Shown: positions 55,034 through 64,000 of the stretch, piece after piece | Position numbering within the stretch: position 1 is the stretch's first letter | Layout: the number at the start of each line of letters is the position of its first letter | DNA from: Macrophomina tecta | Taxonomy: Eukaryota; Ascomycota; Dothideomycetes; Botryosphaeriales; Botryosphaeriaceae | DNA length: 64,000 nucleotides | Direction of reading: 5' to 3' | Assembly (NCBI GenBank): GCA_024180945.1 | Contig: JAKSGN010000007.1 | Span: forward strand, 806,001-870,000 | The notes under the pieces: generated by a model | The model's database searches: none | Seen by the model: the letters and a program-made list of their open reading frames with translations, nothing else | Told to the model about the DNA's origin: nothing | Made by a program: the position numbers and the translations under genes

Positions 55034-56343
55034 CCGCACCCGTGCAAAAGTCAGGGCGCACGGACGTGCACGAGTCAAAACAACAACGTACCCTCTTCAT
55101 CCCTTGCCTCATTACACCACCATGCAGCGCATCTTTGGACGCGAAATTTCAGGCAATGCTAGGCAAAGGCATCAGCTTTCACATGATCAACGAGTTTCGG
55201 TTATTACACAATCGCAAGATGGTAAATCTGGGCGTCAAATTGCCCGTGAGACTCGCTTCTCAGAACACGCAATTAGGAGCTGCATCAACCACTACAATAC
55301 GACTGGCCAGATTGATCTAACACCTCGTACTGGCCGTCCCCCAAAGTCAGCCTTCGCACGGAGCGCCAGATTATTCGTTTTGTTAACCGGTTCCCAAAAC
55401 TTAAGCACAGCCAGGTGATTAAGCAACTCCAGTTATCTATCCATAAAGATACGCTCAGGCGTATTCTACGCAAGAACCATATTACCAAATGGCGTGCAAA
55501 GAATCGGCCTTGGATCTCTCAAGCGAATGCCCGCATTCGGTACCAATATGCAAAGAAATACCGGTATAAGAGCTGGAGATGGTGGATGAGGGTTACGTTC
55601 GGTGATGAGTGCTCAGTTGAGCAGGGCTCTGGCCACGCACCAAGCTGGGTTTTCCGTACGCCTGGCCAGCAAAAGTGGGACCAAAGCCGGCTTAATACAC
55701 GGCCACTTGGCAAGAAGGCAAGATGTATGGTATGGGGTGGCTTTTCAGGCCAGCTAGGGGTGTCTGATTTACACGTTATGGAGCGTGATTTGGACTCTCC
55801 TAGGCAAGGCTATACTGCCAAATCCTATATCAAAGTACTGGAGGAACAGGTGCCAAGAAACTACGACTATGGTATGTACTGGTTACAAGATGGTGCTGGT
55901 ATTCATCGGGCGAACCGGGTGAAGAAATGGCTGCGTGATCACCAAATTAGGTGCATTACTCACCCCCCATATTCGCCTGATCTGAACCTCCAGGAATACC
56001 TTTGGTGGCCACTAAAGATGAAGCTTCAAGAGATTGCGCCATTTATTGAGCTTGAGAAGAATCCTGAGCGCGTGGAGGCATTACTAGCTGAGTGGTTACC
56101 TAGGGCATACGCATTGGTGGAAAAACCAAGCCTTAAAGCGCTTTGTAAAAGTATGCCACAACGGCTTGTAGATGTTATTCAAGCTGGTGGCTATCAAACT
56201 CGCTGGTAGCCTAGCTTTATAAAGAATCAACTCTTACTGCATTTGAGCAACTCCTTGTTGAATAATACGACTCCAAAGTATTGGTGTTGGTGGCAGGATA
56301 ATTAGCGCCTTGGCCGTGCGCCCTGACTTTTGCACGGGTGCGG
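55034..56343 (+). mobile_element. Tc1/mariner-type element
   Basis: 1310 bp with about 31-bp inverted termini starting CCGCACCCGTGCAAAAGTC, flanked by TA (55032-55033 and 56344-56345). Confidence 0.93.
55104..56209 (+). pseudogene. Tc1-like transposase with one frameshift
   Basis: N-terminal HTH (GKSGRQIARETRFSEHAIRS) and the GRPPK linker in frame 55104-55418; the rest in a frame that is open from about 55350 to 56209. The shift falls near the CCCCC run at 55338-55342. Catalytic residues: TFGDECSVE (Asp), WLQDGAGIHRA (Asp) and PPYSPDLNLQEYLWW (Glu), the DD34E layout of Tc1 transposases. Apart from the shift it looks young, so a sequencing indel is possible. Confidence 0.85.
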
Positions 56344-60273: not shown

Positions 60274-60806
60274 TTGGCAAAGCAATAGCTACACATGGGT
60301 AGGCAAAGAATTTGGATTGAAAAGGGTACCCAAAGACGTAGAAAAGACTGTTGAAAGTGAACGTTGAGAGTCGACGTCTAGGGCGTTAGCTTTGAGTGAC
60401 CGGGTTGCGGCGTATATAAGACTAGCCGATTAATCAATATTAAGTAGGAGACAACTACCGATTTTATCTGTTCTTAGCGCACAGGTGCTCCGCCTCTAGA
60501 CAAGGCTTTTTTATTTCAAAAAAAAAAAAAAAAAAAAAAAAAAAACAGAGGACAGCCTGCCGATCATAACCTCCTGTTGCTCTTCGAGGTCCTGTGTGGC
60601 TGCTGCGCGGATCCTGCGCCACAATCCGCGCCACAGAAAACCTGCTCACGGGCTGCTTGCTGCGAAGAAGTGGCCCGAATGGTGACAAGGAAGCGAGTAT
60701 TCTTGCCCCTCAAAGAATGCGCTGGTGCATTGCCAGTTCTCTATGCCAAACAGAAATCTGTATCAAAGAACTAGCTTTTCAAACTTCTCCGAAAATTGCT
60801 CTCAAG
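60274..60806. other. Intergenic with a 28-A run
   Basis: 3' flank of the rhodopsin-family gene and a poly-A tract at 60518-60545. No element with a target duplication was found attached to the tract. Confidence 0.5.
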
Positions 60807-61339
60807 TGTTACGGCGCAGCCTACACAGGACCTGGGTAAGAAGGATAAGAAGGACAAGCGGGGCGCCTACGCGCCCGCGAGAAAGATCCACCGGCAAGGA
60901 GTCACGTGACTCCCGGTTCAACTGTTCAGAGCCTTGGCACTCTGAACTCCTGAACTCGCGAAGTTCAGACGTTCAACCGCTTGGCAGAATGAACCCATGA
61001 ACTATCAGATTGTATACACTCTCCCACTATTATATAAACCACACTCTTTAGATAGCTTTGACCTTCGTGGTCAACTTCAATAACAATTCGCACATTGTTA
61101 GTAACACGGCCTTCGCACGCAGTGCTCAGTCTTGTCACGTGTTCGACTTGCTCTCACCCTCTTCTTGTACCCACTCAAGGAAATCCTTCGACAGGTTTTC
61201 TCCCTCTTCGGTGTTTGGATCCTTAGAGGCAGAGGCCCGCTCGTTACACTTTGACCACCATCCTTGCAAGGAGAGGAAGGTTCCGAGATCAAGTCTCATC
61301 GGGTAAGGTATCACCCCCTAACGAGTTTAGGAAACAGCA
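60807..61339 (+). repeat. Probable Gypsy 5' LTR and leader
   Basis: Begins TGTTACGGCGCAGCC at 60807, has a TATTATATAAACC box near 61026-61038 and leads directly into gag. An end at GTTACA (61241-61246) or AGTAACA (61103-61109) would give the TG...CA form; the 3' LTR lies outside the window, so the boundary cannot be settled and no clear CCA-end primer site was seen. Confidence 0.5.
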
Positions 61340-63178
61340 ATGGCACCAGGATCTCAGATGGAGGTCGACCCGGTCGAGGGTCAGGTTCAGGGTGCCCAGG
61401 GGCCAGCTCAGCCCACACAGCAAACGGAGCCCACCAGAGCTGAGCTCTTGCAGCTCATCGAGGAGCTGAAGGCTCAGAACGCTCGACTGATCGAGCATAC
61501 GACAAAGCGGAGCGCTACTAAGGTTAAAGTAGCGGCACCCGAGAAGTTCGATGGGGACAGGAAGAAGCTTCAATCCTTCCTCCTCCAGATGCAACGCTAC
61601 CTCCAGTTCAATCAAGCGCAATTCGACAGCGACGCCGAGGAAGTACTCTTCGCATCGACCTACCTCAGAGGAACGGCAGAGGCATGGATGGAACCATACC
61701 TTCGCGACCACCTAGCCAACGAACACTCTCTCGAGAAGAGACGAGAAAAGACCAAGGAAATCTTCGGCACCTATACGGGATTCGCAGACAACCTTAGGGC
61801 CACTTTCAACGATCGAGATGAAGTCCGCAAAGCCTCCAACGATATCATGACCGTTAAACAATTGGGATCTGTAGCTGTCTACGCAACCAAGTTTCAACAG
61901 CTTGCAGCCTACCTCGAATGGTCAGACGAGACTTTCCGCGACCTCTTCTACAAAGGCCTGAAGGAAGAAGTCAAGAAGAACATGATTACCCACGAATACC
62001 CGGCCACCTTTCAAAAGATGGTAGACCTTGCGTCTCAGATCGACGGTCGCATGTACGAATGGAAAATGGGTTCCCGACAAGCCAACACCTCGAAACCTCG
62101 CCGTGAAAGAACAACCCTCGAAGGCGGAGACGCTATGGCCCTCGACGCGGCCAACAGACAGGACTCCAAGAAGGGCAACAACAACGGTCGAAACAAGAAG
62201 CCCAAAGGACCTAACCCGAACTGGACGGACGAGCAAAAACAGCGCTACAAGGATCGACTCTGCATCACCTGCGGAAGTGACAAGCACTTCTCTCCTAAGT
62301 GCCCGCAGAACCCTCGCAACAAGAAGGATGGAAAGCAGACCTCGAGCGCTCAACGCGAAGCATCGGTTGCATCCCGTCAAGACAATCACGATATGCTGCA
62401 CTGGACAGCCTGCTACAACGATGACTGTCAGACGCACCAAAGCAGCAAGGACATATCGGGATGGTACCCCCACGAACCGCGACAATTCGGTATGATGACT
62501 AGGAACGAGGAAGTCATCGAGACCGACGATATTATCGACAGTTTCCCCTTGGACGAAGAACTGGTCAACAGCGAAACAGGAGAACTCTACGAGAGCACGA
62601 CCGAAAGCGGCGATAGCGTACGGTCAGGGGACCCTCCGATGCTGTCCGATAAATGGGATACCCTCATCTCATTGGAAGTTCTTGCCGAAAGATACGGCAT
62701 TAGCAAGCACTTACATGACGAATGGGGCAACCTCAGGACCATCTGGATTCCGCATCAAAGAAGCCTTGCCTTGACAGTCCTCTGGGAATGGCGCCAGAAT
62801 ACTCTTTGGGAAATCCGGATCGAACAAAACGGAAAGAAGTACGAACTCCCAGTAACTAAGAATACGACACTTGTCGAGCGCCACCACCAAGGAACCTCTG
62901 CGCGCGAACAGGCAGACTACGACTCCCTCCGAGAGTTAGCGAGGATTCTTTGTCGGCACGGTACGGCAACCATCCAGAATCGCACACTCCAGTGGATACC
63001 GGACGAGAAACTCAACATGCCGACTTTCCGATACCAGGTGCGAAGGGATATAGTCTACCAGCGGAAACAGTTGCGTGCCAATAAATGGACCAACTGGAAA
63101 CAAGCATACCTTCAAGTCAACGAATGGGAAGACTACATGCACAGCGAAGTCTACGGCTATCCGAAGCCAAAAAACTAG
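61340..63178 (+). CDS. Gypsy-type gag polyprotein
   Basis: 612 residues. Retrotransposon capsid domain about residues 55-230: FLLQMQRYLQFNQAQF, ASTYLRGTAEAWMEPYL, TVKQLGSVAVYATKFQQLAA and LFYKGLKEEVKKNM. A basic linker and a zinc knuckle C-x2-C-x4-H-x4-C (CITCGSDKHFSPKC, about 309-322) follow, then an acidic region and an unusual C-terminal 200 residues containing ERYGISKHLHDEWGN and TVLWEWRQNTLWEIRIEQNG, not part of a standard gag. The stop at 63176-63178 directly follows an A-AAA-AAC heptamer in the gag frame. Start chosen because it is the first ATG after the leader and opens a Gln/Pro-rich N-terminus. Confidence 0.9.
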   Translation: MAPGSQMEVDPVEGQVQGAQGPAQPTQQTEPTRAELLQLIEELKAQNARLIEHTTKRSATKVKVAAPEKFDGDRKKLQSFLLQMQRYLQFNQAQFDSDAEEVLFASTYLRGTAEAWMEPYLRDHLANEHSLEKRREKTKEIFGTYTGFADNLRATFNDRDEVRKASNDIMTVKQLGSVAVYATKFQQLAAYLEWSDETFRDLFYKGLKEEVKKNMITHEYPATFQKMVDLASQIDGRMYEWKMGSRQANTSKPRRERTTLEGGDAMALDAANRQDSKKGNNNGRNKKPKGPNPNWTDEQKQRYKDRLCITCGSDKHFSPKCPQNPRNKKDGKQTSSAQREASVASRQDNHDMLHWTACYNDDCQTHQSSKDISGWYPHEPRQFGMMTRNEEVIETDDIIDSFPLDEELVNSETGELYESTTESGDSVRSGDPPMLSDKWDTLISLEVLAERYGISKHLHDEWGNLRTIWIPHQRSLALTVLWEWRQNTLWEIRIEQNGKKYELPVTKNTTLVERHHQGTSAREQADYDSLRELARILCRHGTATIQNRTLQWIPDEKLNMPTFRYQVRRDIVYQRKQLRANKWTNWKQAYLQVNEWEDYMHSEVYGYPKPKN

Positions 63179-63221
63179 ACGGCCCTACGGCATTGGGATC
63201 GACCCAGGGGCCACAGTCTAG
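63169..63221 (+). promoter_or_regulatory. Candidate -1 ribosomal frameshift signal between gag and pol
   Basis: A-AAA-AAC (63169-63175) sits in the gag frame as X-XXY-YYZ. A stem starts 5 nt after it: GGCCC (63181-63185) pairs with GGGCC (63208-63212). Flanking bases extend it, CTAGAC (63175-63180) with GTCTAG (63216-63221) across a 3-nt ACA bulge, and an inner TGGG/CCCA pair (63194-63197, 63203-63206) caps it. A -1 shift here enters exactly the frame that encodes the protease. Confidence 0.75.
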
Positions 63222-64000
63222 GTCCCTTCACATGGTATCACGCACATCGAATACGGAAATTCTCACCGGACCAAATCTTTGGAAACAATTCAAAACGAAA
63301 GGAACACTCAACGGAGTGCCCATCAGGATACTGATCGACACAGGATCAAGCGGAAACTTTATACACAACGAGTTTGTGGAACAATGCAAGATCCTATACC
63401 GGAAGAAGAAAGAGCCATACCCACTCAGCGGATTCGACGGGAAAAGCTCAGTCTACGGAGAAGGCTGGGTAAAGATAGAAACGGAGGAAGCAACCCTCCA
63501 GATCAAGAACCATCGGGAGCAGATTTCCCTCGATGTCCAAAGGATCCCCGGGCATGACATTATTCTAGGTATGCCCTGGATCCGAACACAGAAACCTATC
63601 TTCGACTTCAGCGAAGGAGACGAAATCGTCTTTCGAGAAGAGATCGACGACCTCCTACGAAAATTCGGTTTACGCATGGAAAACGGGTTAATGAACACCC
63701 TACAGCGACTCTTGTCTACTATGAATCGGGAAGTAGCCAGCGTAAGGCCCAAGAGCGGCAGCTGTGTAGGCGACTCCGATAGTGGTGTAAGTCAGAACCA
63801 GGACTGCGACGCAGAAGGCGAAGCCTCCTTGGTAAAATGCAACCCTATCGCAGGAATAAGCCCTACCGAGCGAAACGATACCCTCGAATCATCAAGAGAA
63901 GAGCAAGACTCAAACGATGGCGTAAGGCCCAGTGACGGCAACATCAACGGCAACCTTGAGGGAGGCCTAAGACAGGACCAGGACTGCAGCGTGCAAGACG
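63179..64000 (+). CDS. Gypsy pol, 5' part (protease), runs off the window
   Basis: Open from the gag overlap to the last base in the -1 frame relative to gag. An ATG at 63232 exists but is probably not the natural start. Aspartic protease motif LIDTGSSGNF about 38 codons after it, with HDIILGMPWI downstream where retroviral-type proteases have the ILG strand. The stretch from about 63700 to the end encodes acidic, low-complexity linker sequence, in which a phrase like VRPxxGxxxGD recurs. Reverse transcriptase, RNase H and integrase must lie beyond base 64000. Confidence 0.88.

What the first reader, a model, noticed from the sequence alone, without database searches (positions are those of the whole stretch)
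63169..63221. Canonical A-AAA-AAC slippery site with a stacked stem exactly at the gag-pol junction
The heptamer is in the correct register of gag, the gag stop is the very next codon, the -1 frame is open for the rest of the window and encodes the protease. A GGCCC/GGGCC stem begins 5 nt downstream, extended by CTAGAC/GTCTAG and capped by TGGG/CCCA. Having consensus heptamer, spacing, structure and frame together is unlikely by chance. If the outer CTAGAC/GTCTAG pair forms it would include the C of the heptamer and the stop codon, suggesting two competing folds: one hiding the slippery site, one presenting the ideal spacer.
Basis: partly seen in the sequence, partly recalled or inferred. Interest (0 to 1): 0.75.

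Follow-up and report, generated by a model that had tools for sequence, protein, structure and literature searches.

The report
Fungal retrotransposon gag-pol frameshift signal
A young retrotransposon in a filamentous fungus carries a textbook "slip back one base" ribosome signal between its capsid gene and its enzyme gene; relatives keep the same signal with a different RNA fold from the one first proposed, probably a pseudoknot that competes with a hairpin.

Summary
A_AAA_AAC lies at 63169-63175 in the gag register, the gag stop is the next codon, and pol is in the -1 frame. The element is a young chromodomain Ty3/gypsy retrotransposon (its LTRs are 100% identical) in a 54-Mb genome full of RIP-like dead copies, probably Botryosphaeriaceae (inference). 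Four further families in that genome (B, C, D, E) keep heptamer plus stop. Of 39 proteins from two gag searches, 22 have Lys-Asn at or within 8 residues of the C-terminus. So -1 frameshifting is very likely. Energies do not choose between the folds and there is no two-sided covariation in the five stop-free rows. In one subfamily a gag tail was swapped with the crossover inside about 12 nt that contain the heptamer. A good new member of a known kind.

The parts
60807..61248 (+). 5' LTR (about 442 bp, TG...CA); 3' LTR lies outside the window at G000:C7:874199-874642
   Evidence: other copies start matching at query 259-266 and LTR-only matches end near query 704; the match at C7:874199-874642, taken as this element's 3' LTR, is 100% identical over 444 nt
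61340..63178 (+). gag ORF (612 aa plus TAG): Ty3-type capsid, C-terminal extension with a WCCH-like motif
   Evidence: Ty3_capsid 1.8e-11, Retrotrans_gag 3.3e-11, WCCH 0.0013 below its cut-off
63085..64000 (+). pol reading frame (-1 relative to gag), open past the window end; protease here, RT, RNase H, integrase zinc-binding and chromodomain matches beyond it
63169..63175 (+). slippery heptamer A_AAA_AAC in gag register
63176..63178 (+). gag stop codon directly after the heptamer (TAG here, TAA in families D and E)
63176..63180 (+). 5-nt spacer
63181..63186 (+). S1 5' strand GGCCCU
63207..63212 (+). S1 3' strand GGGGCC
63195..63200 (+). S2 5' strand GGGAUC (pseudoknot)
63221..63226 (+). S2 3' strand GGUCCC (pseudoknot)
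63206..63227 (+). alternative hairpin AGGGGCC/GGUCCCU, excludes S1 and S2
   Evidence: 7 pairs in families A, C, D, E, none variable; part of the nested 60-nt folds of all four

Best explanation
This is the -1 programmed ribosomal frameshift signal through which a young chromodomain Ty3/gypsy retrotransposon makes Gag-Pol. Most ribosomes read AAA-AAC and stop at the adjacent UAG or UAA, giving Gag. A minority, paused with AAA and AAC in the P and A sites by a structure starting 5 nt downstream, slip back one base to AAA-AAA and enter pol. The stimulator is most likely an H-type pseudoknot: S1 63181-186 x 207-212 and S2 63195-200 x 221-226. Shown: heptamer, register, adjacent stop, frame change, conservation in divergent families, helices possible at identical columns. 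Inferred: that frameshifting occurs, that the pseudoknot forms and stimulates it, and its efficiency.
For: Heptamer plus adjacent stop in register in 18 of 18 loci scanned, covering families A, A1, A2, B, C, D and E. In B1, B2 and C the pol frame opens only 21 nt upstream of the heptamer, and by the strict X_XXY_YYZ rule the heptamer is the only site in the overlap of all 7 elements tested. Of 70 fetched loci (the window's own copy included) 69 have the junction, each with exactly six A. Lys-Asn is the C-terminus of 15 of 39 gag hits, and 7 more have it within the last 8 residues. RNA-level constraint: for codons of identical amino acids, C and E share 15 of 15 in the junction against 70 of 133 further down pol (p 1.6e-4); A and E share 8 of 10 against 25 of 72 (p 0.012). 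Between A and E, 3 of 24 S1/S2 columns differ against 20 of 27 other columns (p 1.4e-5), and all three changes keep pairing. The blind best pseudoknot in each of A, C, D and E contains the same S1 and S2 at the same columns. Atkins et al. 2016 (PMC5009743, passages) name A_AAA_AAC among the shiftiest sites for mammalian ribosomes.
Against: No expression data. Covariation is absent in the strict sense: 0 pairs change on both sides among 5 stop-free rows, and on 30 rows including RIP-like copies S1/S2 do no better than column shuffles (89.2% against 89.4% paired, 386 of 500 shuffles as high). The column contrast was drawn after the helices had been seen in the same sequences, and half of its paired columns (the 3' strands) also serve the hairpin; the two 5' strands alone give 3 of 12 against 20 of 27 (A-E, p 0.0061) or 18 of 27 (A-C, p 0.035). 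Close pairs C-D, C-E, D-E show no contrast. Nested folds reach -21.6 (A) and -24.9 to -26.5 (C, D, E) kcal/mol, while S1+S2 stacking of -26.8 and -33.8 must still pay a pseudoknot penalty of several kcal/mol (recalled), so energy does not favour the pseudoknot. L2 is 6 nt, long for a coaxially stacked H-type. B3 (3 copies) has lost the first S1 pair. A looser heptamer-like site, GGAAAAA, also lies in gag register upstream in family D. RIP cannot hit the A-run (recalled RIP preference), so its survival in dead copies says little about selection. The A/C/D/E comparison rests on few independent lineages, all in one genome.
Confidence: 0.72

Rival explanations
1. Same -1 frameshifting at the heptamer, but stimulated by a simple or extended stem-loop (S1 with or without the reader's outer stem and cap), without S2.
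For: It is the nested minimum-energy fold for the window (-25 kcal/mol over 81 nt; -21.6 over 65 nt), and S1 lies at the right distance.
Against: Outer stem and cap are absent in C, D and E (1/5 and 0/4 pairs). S2 strands are kept at fixed columns while neighbouring loops changed at most positions between A and C, D, E.
Confidence: 0.15
2. The heptamer works, but the conserved downstream RNA feature is mainly the hairpin 63206-63227, acting as a switch or attenuator instead of a pseudoknot stimulator.
For: Seven pairs in all of A, C, D and E with no variable pair; part of the nested 60-nt folds of all four. The 3' strands it uses differ in 0 of 12 columns between A and C, D or E.
Against: It starts about 30 nt past the heptamer, too far for direct stimulation (spacing rule, recalled). 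It does not explain conservation of 63181-186 and 63195-200 (3 of 12 columns differ against 18-20 of 27 elsewhere).
Confidence: 0.09
3. Gag and pol are joined in another way: transcriptional slippage on the A-run, splicing, or separate initiation of pol.
For: There is a six-A run; an in-frame pol ATG lies 63 nt past the heptamer start in A, A2, B1 and B2.
Against: Slippage should leave seven-A DNA copies after reverse transcription; none is seen in 69 junctions, many of them near-identical copies. The first pol ATG is at +156 in C and +144 in D and E. Gag tails differ (last 60 aa: A-A2 37%, A-E 17%, but A2-E 69%), which speaks weakly against a shared splice donor; splice sites were not scanned.
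Confidence: 0.04

Closest known systems
-1 frameshift signals of LTR retrotransposons (survey by Gao et al. 2003, not held; known here through passages of Atkins et al. 2016, PMC5009743, which describe a 2003 bioinformatic survey, and a reference list entry)
   Same: Pol in the -1 frame, classical heptamer; [quoted passage not shown]
   Different: Here the downstream element can be read by comparing several families: pseudoknot plus conserved alternative hairpin, and a gag stop directly after the heptamer.
Gypsy elements VdLTRE2/3/4 of Verticillium, with Colletotrichum Cgret as their top BLASTP hit (PMC3441728, passages)
   Same: Fungal chromodomain gypsy elements with POL in a -1 orientation relative to GAG.
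   Different: The passages seen describe the frame only; the word 'slippery' occurs 0 times.
Tca2 of Candida albicans (PMC2194720, start of abstract in a listing)
   Same: A fungal retrotransposon with a potential RNA pseudoknot just after the gag stop codon.
   Different: [quoted passage not shown] here pol is in the -1 frame, so readthrough cannot serve.
Retrotransposon-derived PEG10 and Ma3 frameshift sites with pseudoknots (PMC5009743 passages)
   Same: Classical heptamer with a downstream pseudoknot stimulator.
   Different: Unrelated host and sequence; the pseudoknot here is inferred only, and L2 is long (6 nt).
Frameshift elements that switch between active and inactive structures (umbravirus-like RNAs, PMC10602861, title and start of abstract in a listing)
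   Same: Alternative structures around a -1 site.
   Different: Here the alternative is a local hairpin using both 3' strands of the pseudoknot; no functional data.

Membership tests
-1 programmed ribosomal frameshift signal | X_XXY_YYZ heptamer in the zero frame, within the gag/pol overlap | tested here: met
-1 programmed ribosomal frameshift signal | Stimulatory structure about 5-9 nt downstream | tested here: inconclusive
   S1 can begin 5 nt downstream (3 nt if its two extra pairs form in C, D, E) and is kept in A, C, D, E; shown by sequence only, not by probing
-1 programmed ribosomal frameshift signal | Conservation of site and frame in relatives | tested here: met
   17 of 39 gag hits do not show the Lys-Asn end
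-1 programmed ribosomal frameshift signal | Frameshift product made in cells | not testable with these tools
   no expression data
H-type pseudoknot stimulator | Two interleaved helices at fixed positions | tested here: met
   12 of 12 pairs in A, C, D, E; 11 of 12 in B3; 1/1000 (A) and 0/1000 (C, D, E) dinucleotide shuffles as good
H-type pseudoknot stimulator | Covariation (changes on both sides) supporting S1 and S2 | tested here: inconclusive
   0 two-sided changes in 5 stop-free rows, one-sided only; no excess over shuffles with RIP-like copies
H-type pseudoknot stimulator | Thermodynamically preferred over nested folds | tested here: inconclusive
   near-equal by rough estimate; no pseudoknot energy program
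Ty3/gypsy chromovirus | LTRs, Ty3-type capsid, PR-RT-RNaseH-IN order | tested here: met
   (RVT_1 2e-39, RT_RNaseH 4.7e-41, Integrase_H2C2 1.7e-17 in that order; the integrase core domain was not listed, and the piece L004:2401-3198 between protease and RT matched no family)
Ty3/gypsy chromovirus | C-terminal chromodomain | tested here: met
   PF00385 E 3.9e-10

The most novel reading that the evidence does not exclude
The junction is a portable, bistable cassette. A pseudoknot and a conserved mutually exclusive hairpin set the Gag:Gag-Pol ratio, perhaps according to ribosome spacing. Because heptamer, stop and fold are shared, the cassette also serves as a joint at which different gag tails and proteases are exchanged by reverse-transcriptase template switching without losing expression of pol.
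Probability: 0.15. Interest if true: 0.6.

Novelty: new member of a known kind. Interest (0 to 1): 0.4.

Why it matters
It gives a clear, comparative example of a -1 recoding signal in fungal chromodomain elements, with divergent families in one genome that can be tested side by side. It corrects the likely fold from a plain stem to a pseudoknot with a conserved competitor. It also suggests a simple diagnostic, gag ending in Lys-Asn, for finding candidate sites from protein databases alone. If the cassette is also a recombination joint, it would explain how gag and pol modules are reshuffled without losing the frame relationship.

Tried and rejected
Rfam on 60500-64000: one sub-threshold snoRNA hit only. 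Pattern in window: no second copy. IMG/VR: the gag search found no relative. The third gag search, with a profile, returned 22 proteins, the new ones mainly short fungal proteins and plant proteins, none used in the Lys-Asn count. Covariation as proof of the pseudoknot: tried, not obtained. Literature: five listings (20 of 25, 20 of 23, 14 of 14, 15 of 68 and 8 of 1,878 papers listed), judged by titles and starts of abstracts, showed no paper on a -1 frameshift pseudoknot in a fungal gypsy element; this is not proof of absence, since Gao 2003 is not held. Considered and rejected: stop-codon readthrough (pol is not in frame with gag); transcriptional slippage (no seven-A copy).

Ascertainment limits: 40 loci were found with a junction DNA query (40 of 139 candidates scored), so their heptamer is partly selected. 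Loci L071-L080 came from the protease protein search, 10 of 10 with the heptamer. Of the 20 extra stretches, 8 were also on the junction DNA list; of the other 12, 11 have it, and the twelfth (L101) shows no element junction.

Full report
What is there. The heptamer A_AAA_AAC is at 63169-63175 of the + strand, in the register of a 612-aa gag (ATG 61340, stop TAG 63176-63178), and the -1 frame is open from 63085 to the end of the window. Gag matches Ty3_capsid and Retrotrans_gag; the -1 frame matches aspartyl protease families. Pol continues beyond the window into reverse transcriptase, RNase H, integrase zinc-binding and chromodomain matches; a piece between protease and RT matched nothing and the integrase core was not listed. 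The element has LTRs of about 442 bp, 100% identical to each other over 444 nt, and spans about 7.8 kb (by arithmetic). The pol frame is open for 1769 aa in 11 of 13 near-identical copies. It is therefore a young chromodomain Ty3/gypsy element. The genome is 54.1 Mb. Many other copies have TAG and TAA stops inside, a pattern I read as repeat-induced point mutation (RIP). The host is probably a member of Botryosphaeriaceae: gag is 88% identical to a Botryosphaeria dothidea protein, and a Macrophomina phaseolina protein covering 48% of it is also 88% identical. This is an inference.

Relatives. In the same genome there are further families without stops over the stretches read: A1 (L014-L018), A2 (L032, L034, L035), B (L019-L026 and L028-L030; L027 is a mutated A-like copy), C (L071-L074), D (L075, L076) and E (L077-L080). 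Protease identity to the window is 96-97% (A1, A2), 59-61% (B) and about 41-43% (C, D, E); D and E are close to each other. Eighteen loci from these families were scanned and all 18 have pol in the -1 frame, A_AAA_AAC in gag register, and TAG or TAA as the next codon. By the strict X_XXY_YYZ rule the heptamer is the only site in the overlap of seven representatives; a looser pattern also flags GGAAAAA in register upstream in family D. In B1, B2 and C the pol frame opens only 21 nt before the heptamer. Of 70 fetched loci, the window's own copy included, 69 have the junction, every one with exactly six A. That speaks against transcriptional slippage, since DNA copies made from slipped RNA would carry seven; many of the copies are near-identical, so they are not independent. 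RIP does not hit an A-run (recalled), so survival of the heptamer in dead copies is weak evidence by itself, and 40 of the 70 loci were found with a query that contained the junction.

Beyond this genome only proteins were available. Of 39 proteins returned by two gag searches, 15 end exactly in Lys-Asn, including one Trametes protein (P0038) that is probably a coincidence, and 7 more have Lys-Asn within the last 8 residues. They include B. dothidea, Colletotrichum higginsianum and proteins from unnamed jgi, lgn and ena records, mostly at 31-50% identity to a query. Lys-Asn is what AAA-AAC encodes. The other 17 of 39 do not show it; several are fragments or oddly predicted, but P0021, P0025, P0026, P0031 and P0037 are long (587-809 aa) with other ends, and P0032-P0036 and P0039 (369-435 aa) end otherwise too.

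The fold. Comparison changes the picture. From the heptamer to 63230 the families align without gaps. A blind enumeration of helices present at the same columns in A, C, D and E gave exactly three of at least 5 pairs: S1 63181-186 x 63207-212 with three variable pairs, S2 63195-200 x 63221-226 with one variable pair, and a hairpin 63206-212 x 63221-227 with none. S1 and S2 interleave as an H-type pseudoknot (L1 8, L2 6, L3 8 nt in A); C, D and E extend S1 to 8 pairs and S2 to 7. An independent search for the best pseudoknot in each family returned this one; 1 of 1000 dinucleotide shuffles and 8 of 1000 synonymous recodings did as well for A, and 0 of 1000 of each for C, D and E. Between A and E, 3 of 24 S1/S2 columns differ against 20 of 27 other columns (p 1.4e-5); A and C give 3 of 24 against 18 of 27 (p 1.5e-4). 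This contrast was drawn after the helices had been seen, and the 3' strands also serve the hairpin; the 5' strands alone give 3 of 12 against 20 of 27 (A-E, p 0.0061) and 18 of 27 (A-C, p 0.035). Close pairs (C-D, C-E, D-E) show no such contrast. Synonymous codons are unusually conserved: 15 of 15 against 70 of 133 for C-E, 15 of 15 against 73 of 134 for C-D, 9 of 11 against 25 of 73 for A-C, and 8 of 10 against 25 of 72 for A-E.

Results against. There is no two-sided covariation among the five stop-free rows, and with RIP-like copies included the pairs do no better than column shuffles (89.2% against 89.4%, 386 of 500 shuffles as high). Nested folds are close in energy (A -21.6, C -24.9, D -25.5, E -26.5), against S1+S2 stacking of -26.8 and -33.8 before a penalty of several kcal/mol (recalled). 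B3 lacks the first S1 pair. So the pseudoknot is the best-supported shape, not a proven one, and the hairpin that excludes it is conserved too.

CTAGAC/GTCTAG and TGGG/CCCA are real in the window but restricted to its own lineage: C, D and E keep 1 of 5 inner pairs of the outer helix and 0 of 4 of the cap. Over 30 distinct rows the six-pair outer helix pairs in 62% of cells, helped by two nearly invariant pairs, and the cap in 29%. In families A and B the outer stem and S2 could not form together, because the S2 3' strand begins at the last base of the outer stem and no loop would remain to cross S1 (geometric inference). A ribosome on the heptamer would melt the outer stem and free that strand. 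This is a possible lineage-specific refinement.

Recombination at the junction. Family A2 matches A at 90-96% from -900 to -661, matches D-like gag (83-95%) from -660 to the heptamer, and is A again (85-100%) from the heptamer on. At single-base resolution the last D-specific base is at -4 and the first A-specific base at +9, the third base of the stop codon, so the crossover fell in about 12 nt containing the heptamer (a few isolated A-matching bases lie further upstream; three copies share it, so it is one event). Family B keeps the A gag tail and junction, but from about +102 to +599 identity falls to 46-81% per 60 nt, after which it returns to 90% and more. The frameshift cassette thus sits between exchanging modules. 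That LTR elements recombine is known (PMC5668417, seen only in a search listing).

Mechanism. Gag is made by default, with a stop at the adjacent UAG/UAA. On a ribosome paused by the downstream fold, tRNAs on AAA and AAC re-pair with AAA and AAA, and pol follows. The review by Atkins et al. 2016 (PMC5009743, passages only) lists A_AAA_AAC among the shiftiest heptamers for mammalian ribosomes and notes that in fungi the use of +1 against -1 was less skewed than in animals. Passages of PMC3441728 describe Verticillium gypsy elements with POL in -1, and the abstract start of PMC2194720 describes a potential pseudoknot after the gag UGA of Candida Tca2. The phenomenon is therefore known in kind. 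The parts I did not see described are the comparative fold with its competitor, the stop adjacent to the heptamer in all families scanned here, and the crossover at the heptamer; the searches behind that were made, listings only.

Verdict. Observation confirmed; interpretation partly supported; new member of a known kind; interest moderate.

Noticed in passing
L032, L034, L035 (family A2), crossover at the heptamer: A D/E-type gag tail has been swapped into an A-type element with the 3' crossover inside about 12 nt containing the slippery site.
   Followed up: yes
L019 and L023 (family B), about +102 to +599 from the heptamer: Protease block replaced or strongly diverged between an A-like gag tail and A-like downstream pol.
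   Followed up: partly
window 62396-62449 (residues 356-373 of the gag ORF): WCCH motif (PF03716, E 0.0013, below its cut-off); W355, C358, C363 and H366 (numbered from the Met) are invariant or at least 90% conserved in 20 aligned gags chosen by me.
   Followed up: no
window 55316-56209: Tc1/mariner-like transposase frame, 297 aa, HTH_Tnp_Tc3_2 and DDE_3.
   Followed up: no
window 60518-60545: Run of 28 A about 260 nt upstream of the 5' LTR, perhaps the tail of another retroposed insertion.
   Followed up: no
G000:C7 about 874199-874394: The pol open frame (1769 aa stop to stop from 869085) runs about 195 nt into the 3' LTR (arithmetic).
   Followed up: no
G000, many places: Dozens of related copies with multiple TAG/TAA stops, consistent with repeat-induced point mutation, next to unmutated near-identical copies.
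   Followed up: partly
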